Made by a program: the position numbers and the translations under genes. From Corynespora cassiicola (lineage: Eukaryota > Ascomycota > Dothideomycetes > Pleosporales > Corynesporascaceae), in NCBI GenBank assembly GCA_022059125.1, contig JAEUWY010000020.1, forward strand, positions 310,001 through 374,000: a stretch of 64,000 bases of DNA. The letters are read 5' to 3'. The notes beneath the pieces are model-generated. The model ran no database searches, was not told the DNA's origin, and worked only from the letters and a program-made list of their open reading frames with translations. Position 1 is the first letter of the stretch. Each line of letters begins with the position of its first letter. Positions 1-40,237 of this stretch are shown here, piece by piece.

Positions 1-3000
1 TCGCTTCTCCTCTGGACACGCATGCCTGCTTATCGTGATTTTGATGAACAAGGTGCCAGTCGTCTCTGGTGCATTGGAAGATTGGAGGACTGCGTTGGGT
101 TGGGGTCGTTTGCTCACTTGCGCGCTCGCAATTTCGAGGCCCGATCTGGCCTGACAATCCATCTGCCTGCTCCCCTCCCCCAGTCCGGAAAGGAGGACGC
201 AGGGTGATTTGCAGCGATGGAAGTGGAGGTGGCCAAGCGAATGGGATCAGAACCGGTGGGTTGGGACCGGAATCCGACATGTCGACAGGCCCAGCATGTC
301 GCCGGGGGGCCGTACAGCAAGGCTAGCCCAGTGCGATGTCCACCATCTACCGCGATCACACGTCTTGGCTAAGCGATAGAGCATGATATGTGTCTAATTC
401 GAAGACCAAAAGTTGCGTACGCGTCGCTCGCTCATTCTTGGAATAGGTAATGCTGCTGCCTGGGGCTTTTTGGGTTCCGGTTGGCTTTTGTGGAGATGTC
501 ATCCCCCCTCTCCGTGTTTTGGGGGTTGAATTCCTACCGTTACGAGGGGGCCGAGGCGTCCTCTCCACCTTGGCCACTCTGTTGCACTTTGTTAGCTGCG
601 ACGGGCGCGCTAGAATTGTCATTGGTCACATGATGCATTGCCCCCTCGAGGCTTGGAATAACCACCAATGTGCAGAGGAGTTGGCAGGCCTGTTACGCCC
701 CAGGGGGCGTTTTGTCACGTGTATGGCTGACTGCAGCCCCAAACCACCCGGGCAGGCTTCGAGCTTGTGCACGCTTGAATCCCGGGCTTTGCAATGCGAT
801 TTGCGGGATTGCAGGATCGGGCGGAGGCGTAGCAGGCAGAGCAGGCGGGCGCAATGCAATGCGATGGAGACAAGTGTGGCTAATGAGACAGTGTAGATCA
901 CCAGGCGTAACTTCGGCTCCCCATGGCGCCAGATTTTACTCCATGGGGAATGACCCTCAAGCGCGCTTGAAGTACAAGATGGTCTCGCAATGGCGCAGCG
1001 GCAGGATGAGACGGTATGACGGCAGACGGGCGGGCGGGAGGTGAGAGCCTTGAAACATGGCATGGCAAGGAGCCGTTGAGAGGATCAGTTGAGGAATGAG
1101 TCAAAGCCATGTGTGGCGGCGAACAAAGTGTGTGGAGAATGCGATCGGAGCGGGCCGTTGCGGCACTTGACGATGAGCGTGCTGGGGAGATGATGCTAGA
1201 GAGCTTGGACATGGTTCATCTACAGATCTCGGTCCTGTAATTCAGAATGCGGGCCTTTCAACACAGAGGTCGGCGAAGAATATCCTGAAGGCCTCTGCAC
1301 TGAGAAGCGTTTAGGAGACATATGCTTGAGCTCAGTAAGCATAGACGCTTTTGACTGCTCGACTCCAAGACCCCTCCCTCAGAGCATAAATAAAACATCG
1401 AGTACGAAGTTCTATCACGGCTACCTGGCACCAGACCACAAACTCCGGTCTTTCAATACTATGGGCTCATGGTGAAGAGTGCACGTGTGTACACTCGCCG
1501 GGGCTGGGCTCTGCGCTTGGATTTTGTGCTACGTAGTGCAAGTCAACTTGATATGGATACTTGTTCGCAAATTATATACCCAGTCAGATCATAAGATGGT
1601 TCAATGAGAACGGGTCCAAGCCATTTGACAAGACCACGGTGAAGTTGGTACTGACAAACAAAGGGGGGGGGGGCGTATATCCCCCCCTAGTTTGGCATTG
1701 CAAGTTCCGTGGCCATCTCGGTGTTGCATTGGTAGCCGAGGGGAGGCGCCCGTGATAGAATTTGTCATTGCAGTGCAAAGTTGGACCTTGGATCTGTGCA
1801 ACCACGATGACATTTGCGAAGAGTGAAACCTGCAGAGGGAACGTGAGCCAGGGGGTGTATGACGAATGAAAGGCCGGGATGTTTGCGCGAACCAAATTTG
1901 GCGATGAGGAATCGGCTGGCGAAGTGCAAAAAGACATCAGTTTGCTGCGGCTGCAGCGGAGTCGGTAATGAACCCTATTTCCGATCAATCGACATGTTTA
2001 CTTGGCATGGACAGACGGTGCCGGACTAGCCTTGCTGCACGTCGCCACGATCGGTCCGCGAATGTTCGCATTCCATTCCGGTGAACGCTTTGCGCCCGTG
2101 GCTAGCCTTCTTGGGGGCAAGATGTGGTGCTGCACTGCGTTGTGGTATGTCAAACAGGGACATCGAGATCCATGATCACGGTGAGCCAGAGAACAAAGGG
2201 GGAAACGAAAGGCAGTGCAAGCAACTCAAATCCGGTGGCCTCGGCATGCATGTTCGCTCCGTAAATTGCCACATCGAGTAAACGGACAGCTAAGGTGCGA
2301 GCGAATCTGTTTCCTTGCAATGGGGAAGTGGGCATCCGTCGTCTCCCAGCCCATGGAACAGGCGGGACGGAATGCACTCGGATGTGGCCGCCAGCGAGTA
2401 ATGATGAACTAGGCCAGGCCGGGAAGTAGACTTGCCAATCCCAGACGCTAGCCTTGCTGGTGGGCCAGTCTTGCATCGGAAGCACGACGAGGCTGTCGGT
2501 AAGGCTGATGAGCGGCTCGGGGCCTCCGGGCGCATCTTGTGTCTTCGTAAAGAAGTGCCGTTCTGGGCTTCGCGTGGAGACGCTTCTGCGAAGAGGGCTA
2601 AATGCAAAAGTTCGGGTGGAAGCTGTACTGCAAGCAGGGTGCGGACGAGTGCACATTGGCAGCGCGGAGAGGGGCTCGCTTCGCGGAGCAGCCACTGCAC
2701 GGGGACAGCTGCAGGCGGAATGGAATGGCATGGGTGGTGACGAGGGACTCGCTGTGCAACATGGCACCAACCTGGTCCCTTTCGTCTCAGGCTACTTGAG
2801 CATGGTGTTTTTGGCCTAGGTCAGTCGTGCGCGACCCAGACAGAGCGAAGGCAGAGCGAAAAGCCGATTGAAGACGCGTTCGCAGATGCGCAGAGACTCT
2901 GGGCAAGGCGGCTTGCTAAGCACACTGCGCAGTGGCAGCAATGGCAACCACGAGGGAGATGGGAGGACTCTGACGGAAATAGTAGCGTGAAACTGGGGCG

Positions 3001-4213
3001 GCTAACGCTATCGGTGGGCTTGCTGTGCGATGAGGCCATCCAAACGAAGAACGAGCACGCAGGGTGCTGCTAACCAGAGGACTCGTGGGGGAATAGGTGG
3101 TAGGACAGGAGTGGTTTCGAAAGGCGACTATCCAAAAAGGCGACTGATTCAGCGAGGTTTCCCAAAGTGGCAACATCAAAGGCCCAAAATTAGCCCCCGT
3201 CGAGGCCATCTGGGAAGCTAACGGGACAGAAAGCGCCAGTTGGAGGGAAAAGCAGCGGCTGACGTGCATAATTATAGCTAATAGTGAAGGTCGCTATCCA
3301 ATGGCGCGCTCAGCTGGTAAGGACAGAAGTAACTGGATCGAGCAAATGGCGCTGAGGTAATGGAGCGGCACAGCCATGAGGTCAGCCCTACGCAGGGGCT
3401 CGTGTGTGTGTGTGTGGACGGCAGGCAGTCTAAGCGCGGCTATCGCGTCTAGCAGATCGGGGCACTCACTATTTTTGGGGCCCCGGCGCATCATGGCGTG
3501 TGGGTGCAAGCCAAGTTGATGGGCCAAAGGGTTCCTGCAGCTGCGGCCTCTTCGTCGGGACTGCGACACGTGTGGTGATTAGATGGGTTGCTGATGATGA
3601 TGACGATGATGACGATGGCCATGAACAGGAGTTTGGTCGGCGGGAGGGTCGCGGGAAGCGTGCTTGCAAAGGGCGTCGCAGCCGCAGCCGCAGCCGCATT
3701 CGCAGTTGCAGTCGATTCTCGAGGCAATACACCGTGGCATCCCGGGACAAAGACACGACGATAAAGGCAGGTTGACAGCGGGAGGCTCGATTGCCCGACG
3801 AGGCATTCTCCACTGCAGGTGGTCGTCATGTGCAGGGCACTTCTCGCCCCCAAAGATAGCATACTCAGGGGCTCGCAGAATGGAGTGTATCACAATGGGC
3901 ATGCTCCCCCCCAAGACGGCGGGATAGGCCGTGCATGCGGCAAGCAATTCACCTCGTGGCATGCGGTAGCACAGACAAGGCTCAATCCCGAGTGCTGGGA
4001 TGGAGCGGCTTCGGTGGAATGAGGTGAGAGGGCCAGGGACCATGACAGCGGGCAGGGAGCGATATTATCCTGCGGCAGGTGAGGTGGACGGGGGGCAGCA
4101 GGCTCCACATGGGAACAAGAGGGGCGCCCACGATTGGAGGGCCGTCAGAGCAGTCGTTGTGCGGGGCCGTGCGCGCCTAGAGCAGGTGGTAGGTGGTGGG
4201 TTGAGATAATTTT
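1..4213. other. Long region without a recognisable gene
   Basis: Mixed-composition DNA of roughly 50% GC with only short, overlapping open frames on both strands. None has a recognisable domain, a convincing start context or flanking splice signals. Frames at 2150-2770 (minus) and 450-896 (plus) are the longest and have low-complexity translations. Short homopolymer runs occur, such as a G tract near 1664-1673. It may be the far upstream region of the transcript starting near 5600, or hold an unannotated non-coding RNA. Nothing visible decides between these. Confidence 0.5.
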
Positions 4214-5190
4214 GGGGGGGGGGGGGGGGGGGTGCGCGATTGGGAGATTGCGAGGATGCGGGCATTGGCAACGAGGCGGCAAAGGCAACGAGGCTTTTCC
4301 TGATGGTTCGAGTTTCGAGAGGCAGCGGGTTCAGCAGGTTCAGCAGGTTCAGCAGGTTCGGCAGGTTCAGCAGGCCCAGCAGGTTCGGCAGAGGCAGGGC
4401 AGGACCAATGTCGAGATTGGGCGAGGTGGTGTAGCTCGAGTTGCGACCAAGGGCGGCAGCCATTCCGAAGCGGGCGGGCGCCGAGGCGGTTGGCAGCTGG
4501 CCAGCAGCTGGCAGCTGAGGGCACAACGGCCGGCGCTCCGCCCACGCCCTGGCCCTGGCCCTGGCCCTGGCCCTGGCGCCCTGGCGCCCTGGCTTGCACT
4601 GCACTGCACTGCACTGCACTGTGTTCCCCATGATTGTCACGATTGTCATGATGGACACGGTGCGGCTGCTGCAGGGTGCGAGGCGGCCCCCCGAGACGGG
4701 TGCGCGGTGCTGCAGCGTCGGCTCGACGAAAAGGCTCCGCACGGGCAGTGATTGAAGCAGAGCATCCGGTGCGACGAGGTCCTGGGCGGCAAGAGAGCAG
4801 AGTGGGGGGGGAGGGAGGCAGAGAAGCAGATGGCAGAGGGAGGTCGAGGTCAAGGTCGAGGTCGAGGTCGGGGAGCAGATGATGGGTATGACTGTACCGC
4901 GCATATCTCAGCACGGCCAATCGCACGCCAGCACGCGCTTGTCCCGACCTCTCACTGCCTTCACATGGCCTCTCTGCACACCCCACGCTTTTGACCCCGA
5001 CGGCCCACACGATGCGATGCTACTACGGTTGCTGCTGGCAGACGGCCGGCGAGCGAGCAGGCAGCAGCCCGCCGACGGGGCCTCGTGCTGCACGCCCTGG
5101 GACCGCCGTCGCGCGCCCGTCTACGCTTGCGCTGCGTCGTCTGCGTCTTCTGCATCGTCTGCGTCTTCTGCATCGTCTGCTCTCCTGCAC
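4214..5190. repeat. Cluster of unrelated simple-sequence tracts
   Basis: Seen directly: a 19-G run (4214-4232); a 9-bp tandem based on GGTTCAGCA (about 4328-4392); a CCCTGG hexamer tandem (about 4547-4592) running into a GCACT pentamer tandem (about 4595-4620); a GGTCGA hexamer tandem (about 4841-4872); and an 18-bp unit based on GCGTCTTCTGCATCGTCT (about 5135-5183). Reading frames through these tracts give long but purely repetitive translations, which I regard as spurious. The cluster lies 0.4-1.4 kb upstream of the TATA box of the micro-ORF transcript. Confidence 0.8.
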
Positions 5191-5569
5191 CGGCGGAAGG
5201 GTCCATCAGCCGCGCGCAGGATTCACAGCCCTGGCCGCTGCAGCGCGCGGAGCACGTAGCGTGCAGCCGTGCAGCCACCAGCGTACCCGGCCCTGGATGG
5301 CAGCCCTCGAGGTTGGCCCTGGAGGCTAGCCCGTGCGCCCATTGCGGCTCCCGTCCATCATCACTGCCACACCCCCCCAGCTAGGCCCCGTTGCACCCAC
5401 ACCAGCCCGCGGGTTATTCCTGTCTGCCAGCAGCCCTCTCCCGACGGGCCCAGGGTGCTGCCCGCGAGATGACTAGATGCCTGACCGTGGCTAGCCCGGG
5501 GCGTCGAGCCCGCTGCCCTGGGTTGCGACACCCTGGTCCCTCGACCCTCGACCCTCGACTGCCCGCCGT

Positions 5570-5575
5570 TATAAA
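5570..5575 (+). promoter_or_regulatory. TATA box of the micro-ORF transcript
   Basis: A TATAAA hexamer after a run of CCCTCGA repeats (about 5538-5558), followed by a C/T-rich stretch with repeated TCCTATCC-like motifs, typical of the start region of strongly expressed fungal genes. Transcription probably starts near 5600-5620. No ATG occurs between 5580 and 5848, so the first AUG of such an RNA would open the first MGRGGYN ORF. The start site is inferred. Confidence 0.6.
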
Positions 5576-5847
5576 GATGCCTGGCCGAGCTCAAGGCACA
5601 GTCACTCTACAGCCTATCCTATCCTGTCCTATCCCACCCCATCCAGTCATTCGCCTGCGCCTTCTCTACCTTTTGCCTTTCCTCGTTGCATTTGTTTAAA
5701 GTCTGCTTTGCCGTTCTGACTCAGTCCCTCCATTCCACCGTCTTCCACACACTGCCCGCCTCTCGTCGACGACTACTTATAATCCTCGACTCGTCCCGTC
5801 TCACTCCAAACAACTACCCTCAATCCCTCCACCTGTCTGCCATCCAA

Positions 5848-5871
5848 ATGGGCCGCGGCGGTTACAACTAA
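5848..5871 (+). CDS. Micro-ORF 1 encoding MGRGGYN
   Basis: Eight codons including the TAA stop, encoding MGRGGYN. It is the first ATG after the TATA box at 5570, in a pyrimidine-rich leader free of other ATGs. The start context is moderate (C at -3, G at +4). The same peptide is encoded twice more downstream (5933 and 6053) with different synonymous codons, and the DNA around the copies is not similar, so this is not a simple tandem duplication. It could be a translated regulatory or signalling peptide, or a leader controlling initiation at the downstream ORF. I know no family for it. Too short for normal gene finders. Confidence 0.6.
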   Translation: MGRGGYN

Positions 5872-5932
5872 GCTCATCGCACCTCCGCCTGCACTGGCAC
5901 TTCGACTCTCTCTAATCGCCGTCACTTTCTCC

Positions 5933-5956
5933 ATGGGACGCGGAGGCTACAACTAA
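5933..5956 (+). CDS. Micro-ORF 2 encoding MGRGGYN
   Basis: Second copy of the heptapeptide, 85 nt downstream of the first start and in another frame. Relative to copy 1 it differs only at third positions of Gly codons (GGA for GGC at codons 2 and 4, GGC for GGT at codon 5), so the peptide is unchanged. T lies at -3 and G at +4, a weaker start context than copy 3. No ATG lies between the stop of copy 1 and this start. Synonymous-only change points to selection on the peptide. Function unknown. Confidence 0.6.
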   Translation: MGRGGYN

Positions 5957-6052
5957 GGCCCCTTCTCCTTCCTCCATTACCACACACAAACGCACACCAT
6001 ATCCAGCCAAGAGGCGCCCTACTGTCCCACCACAATCAACCTCGCCGTCACC

Positions 6053-6076
6053 ATGGGCCGCGGCGGATACAACTAA
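6053..6076 (+). CDS. Micro-ORF 3 encoding MGRGGYN
   Basis: Third copy of the heptapeptide, 120 nt after the second start. The context is strong (CACC before ATG, G at +4). It differs from copy 1 only at codon 5 (GGA for GGT). No ATG separates it from copy 2. Context strength rises across the array (weak in copies 1 and 2, strong in copy 3 and the following 43-codon ORF), as expected if ribosomes scan or reinitiate through it. The function of the peptide is unknown. Confidence 0.6.
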   Translation: MGRGGYN

Positions 6077-6117
6077 ACTCGTGCGGTGCTCCCGCCGTCC
6101 ATCTCTTCACCACCACC

Positions 6118-6249
6118 ATGGCCACACACCTCGACGCCACCATCAAGCGCCATCACCGTCCGCGGTCAGCCTTCAAGACGCTCCGCAAGCAACGTCTCGA
6201 ACGATGGCGGCCCGTCCCGCCGGCCCTCGCCACCCCTTCGTCTGATTAA
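6118..6249 (+). CDS. 43-residue basic small protein, fourth ORF of the micro-ORF array
   Basis: The fourth ATG of the inferred transcript, in strong context (CCACC before ATG, G at +4). It encodes 43 residues with a very basic middle (KRHHRPR, then LRKQRLERWRP) and a Pro/Ala/Thr/Ser tail. No signal peptide, membrane segment or known domain is visible. The basic stretch could bind nucleic acid or direct nuclear import, but that is inference. It may be the main product, with the three heptapeptide ORFs acting as upstream ORFs, or merely a chance ORF. A splice event joining it to something downstream cannot be excluded, although I saw no convincing donor. Confidence 0.4.
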   Translation: MATHLDATIKRHHRPRSAFKTLRKQRLERWRPVPPALATPSSD

Positions 6250-7013
6250 GTCGTCCGCCTCTCTTATTCAGCAGCTGTACAACTACCCTCCGTCCGTCGC
6301 ATTGCATTTTCAGCCAACCGAGCCCATGTACTTTTATCGCCTCATATCCCATCATTCGTCTCTTCCTCTTTCCTCCTTTTTTCTTCCTTTCTTGTTTTTC
6401 CTTCACCTTCGTTTCGCTTCCTCGTTTGATTTTGCCAATTTCCAAGCATGCCTTCAACATTTGTCAGCGTTCCAGCGAGCAAGCGAGTTCAGCATGTACA
6501 TGTATAGGATTACGGGTCATGGTCATGGTTACAGGCATATGGGTTATGGGATACGGCATCGGGTCACATGGATCTAGGATAACGGCGTTTTTCCCTTTTT
6601 CTTTTTTCCTTTCCCCTTCTCTTTCCTTATCATCCATTATAGACGGTGGGATTCACGCTCTTCAATGAGCCATGGCATGGGTACCGGGGCACCAGCGTTT
6701 GGCGTTTTTGATCCCTTTCCTTGTCTTTTCCGGGTTAATTTCTTCTTGCAATTCTACAATTCTTCCTCATCTTCGTCCATTCGCTTTGTCTGCTTTGCCT
6801 TCTTCTCGATTTTGTCGTCTGGCTGGTCCGCATGGCATTCTCTCCACCCATACCACAGCAGGATCCATTGGCGCTTGCAGCCAAACCCAACGTTATACAG
6901 CCCCATCAATATCATCTGTCAACCACCACACATTCACCTTGCCTGTTGCATGCATCGCTTCGCTTCGCTGATCGCCCCATGGCATACCAGGGAACAAAGA
7001 AATAGGGAGAGAA
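6250..7013. other. Probable 3' untranslated and convergent intergenic sequence
   Basis: Pyrimidine-rich DNA with long T/C runs (about 6358-6420 and 6590-6640) and no convincing coding frame on either strand. It separates the plus-strand micro-ORF transcript from the minus-strand GTPase gene ending at 7014, so the two genes converge here. Open frames present (for example 6665-7036 plus) look like chance. Confidence 0.5.
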
Positions 7014-9117
7014 CTATTTACCCACGCAGAATCTAGAAGACGCACATTGTCAGCTTCGGCCCCACAAAAGAGCGACATGCCTGGCAGTGGGCCGACAACC
7101 ATGCGGCGCGCGCAGCTCGGGTGGCATGGGCAACTACCCGCATTTCGAGTCGAGCTCGAACTCACGAGCCGAACGGACTGTGCCGCCAACATGGCAGAGC
7201 TCGCAGCAGTGTCAGAACCTATAACGGTTGTGGCTTGTCGTCGTTACGGCGCAGGCCCGTAGCGTCCAGGCACCCAAGCTGGAGCGCGAGGGTTCGGTCC
7301 AACGGGGCCCTGCCACTGGCCAATGACTTGGATGAGACTCACTTTTCGAATACGACGCCTAGCACTTCCTCGACATCGCCGCTCTCCCCACGGCCAGTAA
7401 TCCTGGCCAACGTGTCTGCTCCGAGGCGTAGTGACTCGGCCGCAACCACAATGTCGACATCAATGTCGACCTCGCCATCGTCGTCACCATTGTCTCTCGC
7501 TTCATGCGGCACCGCCTGGTCTGAACCTCGCACGGCGCGAACAAATTCGTCCAGGTGGGAAAGACATTCTGTGAGTAAAAGTCGCTGACGCTCGGTTGCC
7601 CCGAGAGACTCTTGCCATATTGAGGGGTCCGGCTCTGAGTCTGGTACCAGTGCAGTGGTCATGTCTTTGAAGATTTTCACGAGACCTTGGAGGAAGGATT
7701 GGATGTTGCCCGCATCTTTCTCTGGTGATGCCAACGGATCAAGGGTCGCTTCCTTGCAGGAGATGAAGAAGATGTGCTCGGCGGAGATGCCCAAATCAGT
7801 ACCCAGCCGGGCCATCCATTCTTCCTGGGCTGAAGCACTGGCGGGGAGTTGATCAATCTTGTTGATGGCCACAACGACCTGGGTGCCTTGATCAACGCAC
7901 TGCTTTGCCGTTTCAGCGACGTCTGGATCCATGTCGGCTGTGGCATCCTGGACGACGATCAATACGTCCGACTCGAGCGCTCGCTGCTTGGCACGCTTGA
8001 TGCCTTCCTGCTCAATGGCACCAACAGCATCCGAGCCCACCAGCCCGGCCCTCCTCAGTCCAGCCATATCGCCAATCCTGACGAGCCACCCACTCAGGTC
8101 TATCCCGACATCCACCACATCTCTTGTGGTGCCGGCCTCGTGTGAGACAATGGCCGCCTCGCGGCCGACGATGCGGTTAAGGAGGCTACTTTTCCCCGCA
8201 TTGGGGGCGCCGAGGAGAGCGACGCTGATGCCGCTGCGGAGCAGTTCTCCCCGGACGGCATTCGCTTGGTGGGCCTCGATCTGCGAGGCCAGCTTGCGCA
8301 CCTGCTGGGCAACAGATGCGCAGAGCGTGGCTGGCGATTCGTCGAAATGCTGGTCTTCGGAGAAGTCGATCAAAGCCTCGAGTTCGCCCCGGGCCTGGAG
8401 CAGTTGATGGCGCCATTGCTCGTATCGCACAGCCAGCGACGATGTTGTTCCGCGAACAGACAGCTTGCGCTGCTGCTCAGTGGAGGCCGACAGGGTCTCG
8501 CCCAGCGATTCGATCTGGGGCAGATCCATGCGATTGTTGGCAAATGCACGGCGGGTGAACTCGCCTGGCTCGGCATATCTAACTTGGGCAGCACATTGTG
8601 GTATAGCAGCAAGAAGGGCGCGAACAATGGCCGGCCCGCCGTGTACATGCAGTTCGAGCACATCTTCACCCGTCACCGTCTTGGGGGCGGGGAAGAACAG
8701 CACGAGGGCGCCCGAGTCGAGCAAGGTGGACGGCGAGGGCGGCTGGTTGGGCGCGTACAGCCTTCGGAGCGTAGCATATCGCGGCTTTGGCATTGGCGTC
8801 GAAGGACACAGGCCTTGGTAGATGCGGGCACAGGCGGGGCCCGAGACGCGAATGACAGCAATGGCAGCCTTGCCGGGGGCAGTCGAGAGGGCGTAGATGG
8901 TCGGCTCATGGTGAGGAATGGAGTCGGCGTGGAAGCCCCGATTCTGTCGCAAGCTCAATGGCCCCCGGGGGGGACTGAAGGACTGGTGGTGGCCGGTGTA
9001 GCAGACATGGCGGCGAAGCAGGGCGGGCGGAGGTAGACGAGACGGCGGGCGGGCGGGGAGCAGGCTAGCTGGGGCGCGACGACGAAGGGCCCTCGACTGG
9101 GCGATGGAGGCCTTCAT
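7014..9117 (-). CDS. MSS1: Mitochondrial tRNA-modification GTPase, MnmE/MSS1 family
   Basis: Orthologue of bacterial MnmE and yeast Mss1. With the Mto1/MnmG partner it installs the 5-taurinomethyl or carboxymethylaminomethyl group on wobble U34 of mitochondrial tRNAs. Two exons: 9117-7343 and 7032-7014, joined across a 310 bp intron (GTGAGT donor, CTTCTAG acceptor). Unspliced, the frame stops just past the donor; splicing adds the family's FC(I/V)GK end as FCVGK. The 597-aa protein has an Arg-rich presequence (about 1-65), the N-terminal tetrahydrofolate-binding domain (from about 73), and a helical domain with an inserted G domain: P-loop GAPNAGKSS (about 303), TTRD (about 330), DMAG (about 350) and NKID (about 419). 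The start at 9117 was chosen because the frame further upstream runs into the divergent MAK16 gene and lacks targeting character. It shares a 241 bp promoter with MAK16. Confidence 0.93.
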
Positions 9118-9358
9118 TCCTGGAGACGGGCAGGGCGCGCATGATGGATGGCGTGGGTCGAGGATGGGGTGGGGAGTGGAATTGCGAGGGTCCGCACTGG
9201 CTCGCGCTGGCTCGCACTGGCCCGCCCGCCCCACTGAATTTCCGCGCCGGCGCCAAGATTTCGAGCCCTCAGAGAAAAAAGTCGCCCGCCGCTGCCAGCC
9301 CTTCACCACCACCACCAAGCCAGATCCCCCGCTTGATCCTCGCCCACGCTGCACTGCA
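9118..9358. promoter_or_regulatory. Bidirectional promoter of MSS1 and MAK16
   Basis: Only 241 bp separates the two start codons, so both genes must use this segment. It contains a repeated CTCGC(A/G)CTGG motif near 9198-9220 and a C/A-rich stretch just before the MAK16 ATG. No TATA box is evident in either direction, as usual for housekeeping genes. Pairing a mitochondrial tRNA modifier with a 60S assembly factor suggests growth-linked co-expression, which is inference. Confidence 0.6.
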
Positions 9359-10506
9359 ATGGCTTCCGACGACCTCGTGTGGAAGTAAGTCCGCCCGCCG
9401 CCTTCCTCGCCGCTGAAACTGACCGCCCTCGCCAGCGTCATTGGCACCGACTTCTGCTCCTTCAAGCTCAAGACCACCAAGGACCAGACCTTCTGCCGCA
9501 ACGAGCATAATGTCTCGGGCTTCTGCTCGCGCCAGAGCTGCCCCCTAGCCAACTCGCGGTATGCCACCATCCGCGCCGACCCCGCCACCGGAAACCTCTA
9601 CCTCTACATCAAGGCCATCGAGCGGTCGCATCTGCCCTCCAAGTGGTGGGAGCGCATCAAACTCTCCAAGAACTACACCAAGGCCCTGGAGCAAGTCGTA
9701 TGCATTGCCCTGCCTTGTCCCCGAGTCTCGTCTGCTAACCCCCCTCGCAGGACCAGCAGCTGCAGTTTTTCCCAAAGTTTCTCGTACACAAGAACAAGCA
9801 GAGATTGACACGCCTGACCCAGGTCAATCTGCGCATCCGGAAGCTTGCCAAGGAGGAAGAACGCCTGGGGGAGAAGCTCGTCCCGCGTCTCGCGCCCAAG
9901 GTTCGCAGGAGGGAGGAAGGCCGAGAGAGAAAGGCGCTCGCCGCAGCCAAGGTCGAGCGCGCCATTGAGAGGGTACTTATCGACCGTCTCCGAAGCGGCG
10001 CCTATGGCGACCGGCCCATCAACGTCGAACCAAATGTCTGGAAGCGCGTCATGCGTGGCCTGGAGAAGGAAGGGCAGGCTGTCAAGGACGAAGACCGCGA
10101 CCTGGAGGACGAGGAGGAATACGAGGAGGAATACGAGAACGGCGTGGGTGACGTCGAGTATGTCTCGGACATTGAAGGCGAATCTGATGACGACATGGAG
10201 GACTTTGAGGATTGGGTTGGTGGTGATAGCCCCGATGACGACGATGACGACGACGACGATGATGAAGACGATGAGGACGATAACGAGGCCCCAAGCGGCA
10301 GTGACAAGGAAGGCGAAGAAGACGAGCCGGCAGATGACGACACTGAAGCACTCAAGAAGACGCTTGCCAGCCTCAAGCGAAAGCGACCCGCCGGTCCTCC
10401 ACCGCAGGCCAAGAAAAAGCCGTCGAAAGACTCCAAGGGACCGCGCCGGAGGATCGAATACGAAACCGAACGGGAACCTGCCGCGAGGCAAGTGTACGGC
10501 ATGTGA
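9359..10506 (+). CDS. MAK16: Ribosome-biogenesis protein Mak16
   Basis: Nucleolar factor needed for 60S ribosomal subunit assembly, acting on early 66S pre-ribosomes. Three exons: 9359-9384, 9436-9697 and 9751-10506. The introns are 51 and 53 bp, with GTAAGT and GTATGC donors and a CTAAC branch site in the second. The product is 347 aa. The N-terminus ([12 protein letters not shown], then FCSFK) and the Cys-rich segment [19 protein letters not shown] match the L28e/Mak16 fold, followed by the [12 protein letters not shown] and [12 protein letters not shown] segments. The C-terminal third is highly acidic (a run of ten Asp near residues 265-275) and ends in a Lys/Arg-rich tail, typical of nucleolar proteins. 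Length and layout match fungal orthologues. Confidence 0.95.
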
Positions 10507-36880: not shown

Positions 36881-38363
36881 CTAGCGTCTACTGGTCGAAT
36901 TACTTGTAGACTCAAGGCCGACAGATATCTCCGCAATCATCGACCTCCATTCATCCCACATGAAGTCAGCAAAGGTTTCATTCTGGAGAACTTGTATTCC
37001 TGTCAATGCAAGTATCTTTGCGGTTTTAATTGCCTGATCATGAGCAAAGTCCTGAATAATTCAGTATGGGTTACAATCATATGGTCATGTTTCAAACTTA
37101 CAGTTCCAGCTTGTTCGCGGAAGCCCGCATTGTGCACAGGAGCCGATCCCCCCACGGGAAAGTTGACCTGAATGGATGGCAGAAACCACGAGACGTTACC
37201 CTGGTCAGAAGAGGCTGATGCTTCATCGCTGGCATCTTCTGGCGCCACCACAGTAAAGTTGGACGTCTCGGGATCTTGGGATGGATCAAGATGCTCCATT
37301 TGAAGCTTGTAGAATTCGTTTGCCAATGAAAAGCTAGGGTTTTGATCCCAGTAGTCTTGGAATGGAGCGATCTCGATAGAAGTATTGGTTGCGTTGGAAG
37401 AGGCGTAAAGTATGTTGTAAAGCTGTTGTCTGACGTGCTCGGCGCGAGGCCTAGAGGAGCCTCTTACTCCCCAGACAGAGTCCACGAAGTCCGGGATGAT
37501 GTTTGCTACCATGTCACTCTGACCTTGAACAATATGGTGGATACGATCAGTGCCCATGAGTTGCTGGCGGAGCATTCCTGTCATCGAGTATGCAGAAACA
37601 AACCCATCCAGTGCATTGCGTCCTAACCAAGGAGCAGCAGCAGCATGTGACGCTTCGCCCGTCCAAGTGACATTTGCCCGCCAAGAGGCCAAAGTCTTGC
37701 TCCATGATCCATAGACATTGTTTCCAGGATGAGCCATTAGGCTGCAATCAAGGTTTTCATACGCTCCCGCTTCGAGCAGCCTGACTTTTCCACCTGCAGA
37801 TTCCTCTGCCGGCGTACCAATGAGTCTGGCAAGATTAGCAACCTCGTTGATAATATTCTACACGCAATGATAGCTTACACTACTTTACCGCTGATACCCT
37901 GGTTTTCCAATGCTTCCTTGACTCCTATGGCAGCTGCCACCCCGACAGTCGCTATGAGATTATGGCCACAAGCATGTCCAATGCCAGGCAGCGCATCGTA
38001 TTCTGAATTAAAAGACACTGCACGCCCTTCGCCGCTTTGAAACTCAGCGCGGAAAGCTGTACTGATGTTATGCGCGCTTCGCGTTACGTTGAAGCCTTGC
38101 TCTTCAAGGAATTCCGTCAGCGTATCGTGCGCTTGAACTTCCTCATAGGCTATTTCCGGGTTCTCCCATATCTAGCCTTCCGATTAGCCATGGAAATCAT
38201 TTCACATTTGATTTGAAGGTTGACTTGCCTTCCGGTTGACTTCTCTAAGACCGTCGTTATTTTTGTCGATTGCAGCAAACACTTCATCTGTAAGTCCATA
38301 GACTTGTGGAATTCCTATCAGAGTGCTCGCGCTAAAAAGCAGTCGAGCGGTAGATGACTTCAT
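36881..38363 (-). CDS. Secreted M20 family metallopeptidase/amidohydrolase
   Basis: Four exons (38363-38229, 38171-37879, 37825-37102, 37051-36881) encode 440 aa. Intron 1 uses a GC donor (AAG then GCAAGT) with a TAG acceptor; the others are GT-AG. A hydrophobic N-terminus (MKSSTARLLFSASTLIGIP) suggests export. M20 metal-site signatures: FNSEYDALPGIGHACGHN (about 99-116) and GTPAEES (about 146-152, with the catalytic and metal Glu pair). A dimerisation-domain region follows (SWRANVTWTGEASHAAAAP, where the family has a GxxxHAxxP pattern). This is closest in layout to the aminoacylase-1-like/PM20D2 group, which cleaves amide or dipeptide bonds; the substrate is unknown. It is the last gene before the AT-rich block. 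Confidence 0.88.
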
Positions 38364-39106
38364 TGTATATGATCAGGTACTGGGCGCCTGAGACTTCTAA
38401 ATTCACCTCCAAGGGGGGTGGGGTTATATAGGCAAATCGACTGTCCTATCACCTCTCTACCAGCACAAAGCTGTTGCTTGTCAACTCGCGCAGAGTAGAT
38501 AGCTAGCCTTAGCTTTCTCCACCCTTATCGGCAACATTTTCGGCGTACACTAGCCGAAGAGCATCAAGACTTCCTATTCCAGAACTGCCGATATCGCTCT
38601 TCGGTTCGGAAGAAGGAGCGGGTATGTCCATTAAGATAAGACCGCAATTACAACGCTACGCTATTACAAACTTATGCGACAGATCAGAGTATTTTGAATA
38701 AGATAGAGTGAACTGCGAGTAGTGTATACGAACATCTAGAGTGCTAAGCAACTTGACCTTGACCTTGCATACAAGAGTATAGAAGAGCCAAGTCCCTGTC
38801 TCACGGCGCCCATTATGCCTAGAGCTCGATTATAAGTCAAGTAAGTTATCGCGGCTCTGTGCATTTTAAACGATAGTTACTATGCTTGAAGCAGTCCATG
38901 TTGCCGCGGCTGATTCCCGTTCGACCTTCCAAGAGTCTTGGCTGCGGGGCATAGACGCTTTGTCTTAGCTACCTGCCTATTTAAATAAGCAACACCGGCA
39001 GTTAAAAAGTCTACTATCTGAAGAGCTGTAGGAGTCCTTTTCTCTCAGCTTTGCTGGGCCAGGACTAAACGATAAGTATAGACAATATGTATAAACAGTA
39101 ATAACG
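38364..39106. other. Transition from gene-bearing DNA to the AT-rich block
   Basis: Composition falls from about half GC to below a quarter within this interval. It includes the promoter of the M20 gene and otherwise no gene. Some GC-containing motifs remain up to about 39060. Confidence 0.6.
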
Positions 39107-39215
39107 GGTTAAGGCTGTGCTACAGACTATAAGCGAGACTAGAAAGCAAGTAGCTGCTTAGATTAATTTTTAAAAATAAGTACTAGTAAATATTACGTAA
39201 GTAAAATAATGTATC
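39107..39215 (-). repeat. LTR fragment of the A/B Gypsy family
   Basis: About 110 bp matching the first part of the family's LTR as read on the plus strand (GCTGTGCTACAG, then CTATAAGCGAGACTAGAAAG). It is truncated after AAAATAATGTA. It is the least mutated LTR start in the block and sits at the edge of the gene-bearing DNA. Confidence 0.7.
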
Positions 39216-39216
39216 T

Positions 39217-39450
39217 AAAAAGTTGTAAAAGTTTTTTTTTTTAATTTTACTAAACTAAAACTAAATATAGTAAAGTATTATAAGCGTTAACTAAAAAGCA
39301 AATATAAAATAATAAACTTTAGATTATACTCTGTATTATTTAACTATACTAAAATAAAAAAATTAAAAAATATAGAAAATATTTAGCTTTTTATTTAAAA
39401 AGCTATAAAAGTTTTTTTTTTTAGCTTTACTAAGCTAAAACTAAATAATA
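39217..39450 (+). repeat. Direct repeat of about 50 bp
   Basis: Two similar units, about 39217-39268 and 39395-39452, each AAAAAG, then a TATAAAAGTTTT-like run with a long T tract, then TTTACTAA(A/G)CTAAAACTAAATA. They are spaced about 180 bp apart. Nature unknown; possibly LTR-derived. Confidence 0.5.
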
Positions 39451-39764
39451 AATATAAATAATAAATATAATTAGTAATAAATTATAAATTTAAAAAAGTA
39501 GACGGCGCAGGCAACGCTTTTAAAAAATAGCTAATAATAAATATTAATAGTAAATACTTATTACTCTGCTAAGTTAAAATAAATTATATAATAGTTTTAT
39601 AAAAATATTAACGCTAAATAAAGTTTAGTATAAATTTTTTTAAAATTTATAACTTAATATTTTATAAATTTTATAGTTTTATAAAAATAGATTTATAAAT
39701 TTTAGTATATATATAGTCTATATAATTATATTTTATAATTATATTTACTTTATTAGCAAATTTA

Positions 39765-40237
39765 TATTAAAGCTGTGCTACAGGCTATAAGCGAGGCTAG
39801 AAAGTAAGTAGCTGCTTAAATTAATTCTTAGAAATAAATATAAGTAGAGTTATAGAAGTAAAATAATATATAATATACTGTACAGATTTCTGTATTAGTA
39901 ATAAAGCATAATAAGTTAATAGTTAATTCTAAATAATAAATTTATTAATAAAATAAATATAATTATAAAGTATAATTATGCGAACTATATATCTATTAAA
40001 TTTTTTAAATTTTATAGTTCTATAAAACTATTTTTATAAAACTATAAAATTTATAAAACGCTAAATTATAAGTTTTAAAAATCTTATACTAAACTTTTTT
40101 TAGTATTATTATTTTTATAGAACTATTACGTAACTTGTTTTAGCTTAGCAGAGTAATAAATATTTATTATTAATATTTATTATTAGCTATTTTTTAAAAG
40201 CGTTGTCTGCGCTGTCTACTTTTTTAAATTTATAATA
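39765..40237 (-). repeat. Left LTR (3' LTR) of Gypsy copy A
   Basis: 473 bp, matching the right LTR over its whole length with many transition-type differences. Confidence 0.85.

What the first reader, a model, noticed from the sequence alone, without database searches (positions are those of the whole stretch)
5848..6076. Three successive micro-ORFs encode the identical heptapeptide MGRGGYN with only synonymous differences
Seen directly: 24-nt ORFs at 5848, 5933 and 6053, each Met-Gly-Arg-Gly-Gly-Tyr-Asn-stop. Codons 2, 4 and 5 vary only at third positions, and the sequences between copies are not alike. Chance or recent duplication would not give identical peptides with synonymous change and unrelated spacers, so selection on the peptide is the simplest reading. 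Established comparison: the Drosophila tal/pri transcript is polycistronic for short related peptides. I know of no described fungal counterpart. The peptide could be a signal, a ribosome-stalling leader, or a small RNA- or protein-binding ligand.
Basis: partly seen in the sequence, partly recalled or inferred. Interest (0 to 1): 0.92.

Follow-up and report, generated by a model that had tools for sequence, protein, structure and literature searches.

The report
Fungal gene with three identical heptapeptides
A plant-infecting fungus carries, in a row, three tiny reading frames that spell the same seven-amino-acid peptide with different silent spellings, which looks like a gene whose product is a very short peptide, a gene type best known from insects.

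Summary
ORFs 5848-5871, 5933-5956 and 6053-6076 (+) each read MGRGGYN-stop. They are the only hits in the 44.35 Mb own genome, also with 2 mismatches; 0.0015 single copies are expected by base composition. The copies differ at three sites, all fourfold-degenerate (P = 0.002). Identity is 88-96% inside the ORFs and 29-43% outside, where 28-32% is expected. Neighbouring MSS1 matches Corynespora cassiicola at 100%. I read this as an unspliced mRNA, starting after a TATA box at 5570, that makes one heptapeptide from three cistrons by leaky scanning or reinitiation, probably acting in trans. A basic 43-codon ORF (6118-6249) follows, so the layout resembles insect tal/pri/mlpt, without its LDPTGXY motif. 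The main rival is a triple uORF controlling that ORF, whose coding status is unresolved. Transcription, translation and conservation in other fungi could not be tested. No paper in the held library contains MGRGGYN. I file it as a new variant of a known kind.

The parts
5570..5576 (+). TATAAAG, candidate TATA box; transcription start inferred some 30 nt downstream, near 5600
   Evidence: read directly; function inferred
5600..5847 (+). inferred 5' leader, pyrimidine-rich, without any ATG
5848..5871 (+). micro-ORF 1, MGRGGYN-TAA, start context CCAA ATG G (C at -3)
5933..5956 (+). micro-ORF 2, MGRGGYN-TAA, start context CTCC ATG G (T at -3)
6053..6076 (+). micro-ORF 3, MGRGGYN-TAA, start context CACC ATG G (A at -3)
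6118..6249 (+). ORF4, 43 codons plus stop, basic (pI 11.9), A at -3 of its start, 41 nt after the stop of ORF 3; coding status unresolved
   Evidence: no homologue, no Pfam match, no second copy in the genome
6250..7338 (+). inferred 3' untranslated and intergenic stretch up to the end of convergent MSS1; ORFs 6326-6574 and 6665-7036 in it have no Pfam match
   Evidence: 3' end not determined

Best explanation
The locus is a small gene that encodes a heptapeptide, MGRGGYN (GRGGYN if the initiator Met is removed). Shown: three separate stop-terminated ORFs with the same peptide, alike within the ORFs and not in their flanks. Inferred: one unspliced mRNA starts near 5600. Scanning ribosomes meet no ATG before the first micro-ORF and none in the spacers. 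The first two starts lack a purine at -3 and the third has A, so some ribosomes pass or reinitiate and all three cistrons are translated, which triples the yield of one very short peptide. The most likely role of the peptide is as a trans-acting ligand of a protein or RNA, as Pri peptides act on Ubr3. ORF4 may be a fourth, different cistron.
For: Three identical peptides with variation only at fourfold sites, P 0.002. Identity 0.88-0.96 inside ATG..TAA against 0.29-0.43 in flanks, expected 0.28-0.32. No other copy found in 44.35 Mb. 0 ATG in the 446 nt of leader plus spacers, expected 2.4, P 0.073, suggestive only. No strict splice donor paired with branch point and acceptor in 5561-7340. Tyr TAC, Asn AAC and Arg CGC are kept in all three copies and are the commonest codons for their residues in seven neighbouring open frames. 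Not a structured RNA: 17 of 20 shuffles fold at least as well. No clear main ORF follows on the + strand before convergent MSS1.
Against: No RNA, ribosome-profiling or peptide data were available. No second species was examined, so age and constancy of the peptide are unknown. The lack of ATG is not significant: P 0.073, and 455 of 10,056 stretches of 248 nt in the sample are ATG-free; of 8 composition-matched 446-nt windows none was. Seven codons give little coding signal on their own. Purifying selection is inferred from only three copies and three variable sites. One flank pair (downstream of copies 2 and 3) is more alike than shuffles, P 0.01 of nine tests.
Confidence: 0.6

Rival explanations
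1. The three ORFs are uORFs in the leader of ORF4. The nascent MGRGGYN peptide, or termination after it, stalls ribosomes and so sets the translation of the 43-aa protein, with three copies making repression tight; it acts in cis, like the hexapeptide uORF of mammalian SAMDC or the fungal arginine attenuator (both recalled).
For: ORF4 follows 41 nt after the third stop with A at -3 of its start. Its codon score exceeds 90 of 90 random ORFs when the background is not composition-matched, and 3.2% of its own base shuffles reach it. A peptide-dependent stall would also be selected at the peptide level.
Against: With the composition-controlled score ORF4 (z 1.9) is reached by 17 of 119 random ORFs. 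No homologue found (both need shared 5-residue words) and no Pfam family. The leader peptides I recall are single copies.
Confidence: 0.22
2. A repeated DNA or RNA binding motif, untranslated, happens to read as an ORF.
For: 24-nt units repeated in a probable leader could be protein sites.
Against: The variable sites are only fourfold ones; the unit runs from ATG to TAA; copies 1 and 3 hold the palindrome GCCGCGGC, which copy 2 breaks without changing the peptide (sequences); no copies elsewhere; no unusual fold.
Confidence: 0.08
3. Neutral short duplication or gene conversion copied a 24-nt piece twice.
For: Copies 1 and 3 differ at one base of 24; copies 2 and 3 have the nearest flanks (60 nt upstream identity 0.43 against 0.30 expected; 60 nt downstream P 0.01).
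Against: Identity falls off at the start and stop codons; fourfold-only variation, P 0.002; in the only other same-peptide pair in 284 kb the likeness runs on past the stop, as a plain duplication should.
Confidence: 0.06
4. Chance.
For: None found.
Against: Expected single copies in the genome 0.0015, expected triples within 250 nt about 1e-20 under a simple base-composition model.
Confidence: 0.001

Closest known systems
tarsal-less / polished rice / mille-pattes (tal/pri/mlpt) of insects
   Same: Several short separate ORFs in one gene that repeat one peptide motif, followed by a longer ORF. Clogmia Ca-tal has repeats of 11, 10, 11 and 29 aa spaced 111, 126 and 334 nt, then a 39-aa peptide; tal C-terminal peptides carry GREETSSCRRRR (PMC6124123, passages). 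Here there are three 7-aa repeats spaced 61 and 96 nt, then a basic 43-aa ORF.
   Different: No LDPTGXY, and no GREETSSCRRRR in ORF4 by reading. Here the whole peptide is identical in all copies, not just a core. Fungal; transcript not shown.
GCN4 / cpc-1 type uORF leaders of fungi
   Same: Several very short ORFs in a leader, with reinitiation after short ORFs (PMC5972666, passages).
   Different: No recognisable main ORF follows. The repeated identical peptide is not a feature I recall for those uORFs.
Peptide-dependent leader uORFs (arginine attenuator of arg-2/CPA1; MAGDIS of SAMDC; recalled)
   Same: A short peptide conserved in sequence.
   Different: Single copy, with a well-defined downstream enzyme gene (recalled); here three copies and no clear main ORF.
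Kex2-processed repeat precursors (alpha-type pheromone, dikaritin-like RiPPs; recalled)
   Same: Repetition of one short peptide in a fungal gene.
   Different: Those are one secreted ORF cut by proteases; here each copy has its own ATG and stop.

Membership tests
tal/pri/mlpt | several separate short ORFs repeating one peptide motif | tested here: met
   three MGRGGYN ORFs
tal/pri/mlpt | LDPTGXY motif in the repeated peptides (PMC6124123; LDPTGQY in PMC8435736; passages) | tested here: not met
   the peptide is MGRGGYN
tal/pri/mlpt | C-terminal peptide with GREETSSCRRRR (PMC6124123, passage) | tested here: not met
   ORF4 is basic but lacks it by direct reading of the translation
tal/pri/mlpt | one polycistronic transcript | not testable with these tools
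   no RNA data; TATA box, lack of introns and ATG-free leader are only consistent with it
tal/pri/mlpt | peptides bind Ubr3 and trigger processing of the Svb transcription factor (PMC8435736, passage) | not testable with these tools
   needs experiment
GCN4/cpc-1 uORF control | downstream ORF for a bZIP activator on the same strand | tested here: not met
   no Pfam match in ORFs 6118, 6326 and 6665; the next gene, MSS1, is on the other strand
peptide-dependent leader uORF | a functional main ORF downstream | tested here: inconclusive
   ORF4 coding score above 90 of 90 null ORFs but reached by 17 of 119
Kex2-processed repeat precursor | copies within one continuous ORF | tested here: not met
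   each copy ends in TAA; by its coordinates ORF 1 lies in another frame than ORFs 2 and 3

The most novel reading that the evidence does not exclude
This is a fungal polycistronic micropeptide gene, unrelated to tal/pri, in which three cistrons make one identical heptapeptide that acts in trans as a regulator, with a fourth basic cistron: an independent origin of the tal/pri architecture outside animals, and among the shortest genetically encoded eukaryotic peptides I can recall.
Probability: 0.48. Interest if true: 0.9.

Novelty: new variant of a known kind. Interest (0 to 1): 0.76.

Why it matters
Gene finders as a rule discard ORFs this short, so genes whose only product is a heptapeptide would be invisible in fungal annotations. 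If true, the tal/pri design (repeat one tiny ORF on one mRNA) arose independently in fungi, and internal repetition with synonymous change gives a simple way to find such genes without expression data. The alternative reading, three copies of one leader peptide, would also be an unusual translational control.

Tried and rejected
Relatives: the pattern in IMG/VR gave 3 loci, each with a single match, and in GTDB prokaryote contigs 3 loci, each with a single match. Only 1 of 3 in each set has the full GRGGYN codons (L005, L008); the other four must use the serine codons that my loose pattern let through. I take these as chance. MSS1 in IMG/VR found 3 pattern matches and no relative, so no other fungal DNA was reached. 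ORF4 gave no candidate at 43 aa, and the 125-aa open frame holding it gave 28 candidates, none with E <= 1. Rfam at E <= 1 on 4500-8000 gave one match, to a microRNA family at 4600-4679, 22.4 bits against a gathering score of 75: rejected. The bacterial promoter and terminator scan is not informative for a fungus. RNA folding: rejected as an explanation. ORFs 6326 (83 codons) and 6665 (123 codons) as main ORFs: no Pfam match; 22.6% and 5.0% of their base shuffles score as high, so the second is not excluded by codon use.

Literature: ten searches, of which I saw listings only: searches gave 0 papers; one gave 2; one gave 3; one gave 7; one gave 18; 8 gave 55 (20 listed); 46 gave 30 (12 listed). 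No listed title or abstract start describes a fungal counterpart; the unlisted 35 and 18 were not seen. Of three of the listed papers I then saw passages. The 7 hold GRGGYN or MGRGGY; by title they concern phase separation, RNA regulation, nuclear import and delivery. Subscription papers and bioRxiv are not in the library.

Full report
Where it is. The window is G000:C20:310001-374000 of a 44.35 Mb genome in 23 contigs. The convergent neighbour at 7339-9570 (-) is MSS1/MnmE (Pfam TrmE_N, MnmE_helical). Its best database match is 100% identical over 81% of the searched part to the protein of Corynespora cassiicola Philippines; the other 119 hits listed (of 6705) are 64-77% identical, and those with names I know are mostly Pleosporales (taxonomy recalled). 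The organism is therefore C. cassiicola or very near it. Beyond MSS1 lies a Mak16-like gene (9739-10503). To the left, outside the window, are open frames matching Hus1 (ending at about -1251 in window coordinates), peptidase A4, an SNF-type transporter and a diaphanous formin, and one with a weak arrestin match below the Pfam cut-off. Between the Hus1-like frame and the TATA box at 5570 are about 6.8 kb; the two ORFs there that I gave to Pfam (2150-2731 and 4065-4904, both -) matched nothing, and I did not test the rest.

What is there. Three ORFs of seven sense codons and TAA stand at 5848, 5933 and 6053, + strand, by coordinates in frames 1, 2 and 2. Their peptide is MGRGGYN. The spellings differ at the third base of Gly2, Gly4 and Gly5 only. 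Three variable sites of 24 all falling on the four fourfold-degenerate sites has probability 4/2024 = 0.002; all falling on any third base has 0.028.

Is it chance or a repeat? The degenerate pattern has no other match in the genome at 0 or up to 2 mismatches, and 5560-6700 has no second copy (the tool skips simple repeats). A base-composition model expects 0.0015 single occurrences. Gapless identity of copy pairs 1-2, 1-3 and 2-3 is 0.88, 0.96 and 0.88 inside the ORF, 0.32, 0.30 and 0.43 in the 60 nt before, and 0.32, 0.29 and 0.33 in the 76 nt after; 0.28-0.32 is expected from composition. Of nine local alignments of flanks or spacers against shuffles, eight gave P of 0.13 or more and one (downstream of copies 2 and 3) 0.01. 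So an old tandem origin is possible, but what is kept is the ORF. As a control, 4,018 micro-ORFs of 5-30 aa in 284 kb gave one other pair with the same peptide within 500 nt, and there the likeness continues past the stop.

Transcript anatomy (inferred). TATAAAG stands at 5570-5576. From 5600 to the first micro-ORF there is no ATG; in leader plus spacers (446 nt) there are 0, where dinucleotide shuffles expect 2.4 (P 0.073). That is suggestive, not significant: 455 of 10,056 stretches of 248 nt in the sample also lack ATG. For comparison 6250-7338 has 21 ATG (expected 13), 4500-5560 has 13 (expected 14), and the reverse strand of 5600-6117 has 11. All ATGs on the + strand from 5600 to 6300 are the three micro-ORFs, ORF4 at 6118 and one inside ORF4 at 6204. 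The base at -3 is C, T, A and A for ORFs 1-4, so by the scanning model the early starts are leakier. No strict donor paired with branch point and acceptor was found in 5561-7340. The RNA 5600-6260 folds no better than shuffles (z +1.23; 17 of 20 fold at least as well).

ORF4. It encodes 43 residues, 13 of them K, R or H and 3 D or E, pI 11.9. Its codon score beats 90 of 90 random ORFs against a local trinucleotide background. When composition is controlled its z is 1.9: 17 of 119 random ORFs score as high (their mean 0.7), and 43-codon pieces of four known genes average 1.4 to 4.1. No homologue, no Pfam match and no second copy in the genome. I call it unresolved.

Mechanism. I favour a gene whose product is the heptapeptide, translated three times from one mRNA by leaky scanning and reinitiation. 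Reinitiation after very short ORFs is established in eukaryotes (PMC5972666, passages). A trans role is preferred over a cis role because no clear main ORF follows and three identical copies multiply product. The cis reading, a triple leader peptide acting on ORF4, stays open at about one in five. RNA binding or arginine methylation of the RGG-like core is speculation from the letters alone.

Comparison. The closest design is tal/pri/mlpt. In flies pri makes four peptides of 11-32 aa, all with LDPTGQY (PMC8435736, passages); in Clogmia four short repeats precede a 39-aa C-terminal peptide, of the type that carries GREETSSCRRRR (PMC6124123, passages). The layout here is alike, the sequences are not, so it may work like that family but is not a member.

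Novelty. MGRGGYN occurs in 0 papers of the held library; searches for fungal polycistronic micropeptides listed no counterpart among the entries shown (two searches showed 20 of 55 and 12 of 30). The library lacks most subscription papers and bioRxiv, so this is weak evidence of absence.

Noticed in passing
window 40001-64000: G+C falls from about 0.5 to 0.14-0.22 for some 24 kb, with 0.33 at 38001-40000, as in AT-rich, RIP-like blocks of some ascomycete genomes (recalled).
   Followed up: no
L014 about 762-876 (- strand): Two micro-ORFs MLSLRHRP 88 nt apart (start to start) whose DNA likeness continues some 20 nt past the stop; useful as a contrast to the MGRGGYN copies.
   Followed up: partly
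window 7339-9570 (-): The MSS1 open frame runs 743 codons from its first ATG, while the matching deposited C. cassiicola protein has 484 aa; which start is used is not settled.
   Followed up: no
L005 7381-7404 (-); L008 7361-7384 (-): Single MGRGGYN-stop matches in a 223 kb IMG/VR contig and in Spirosoma telluris, taken as chance.
   Followed up: partly
window 4546-4620 and 5140-5180: Short tandem runs (CCTGGC, GCACT and CTGCGTCTTCTGCATCGT units, read by eye) in the stretch upstream of the micro-ORFs.
   Followed up: no
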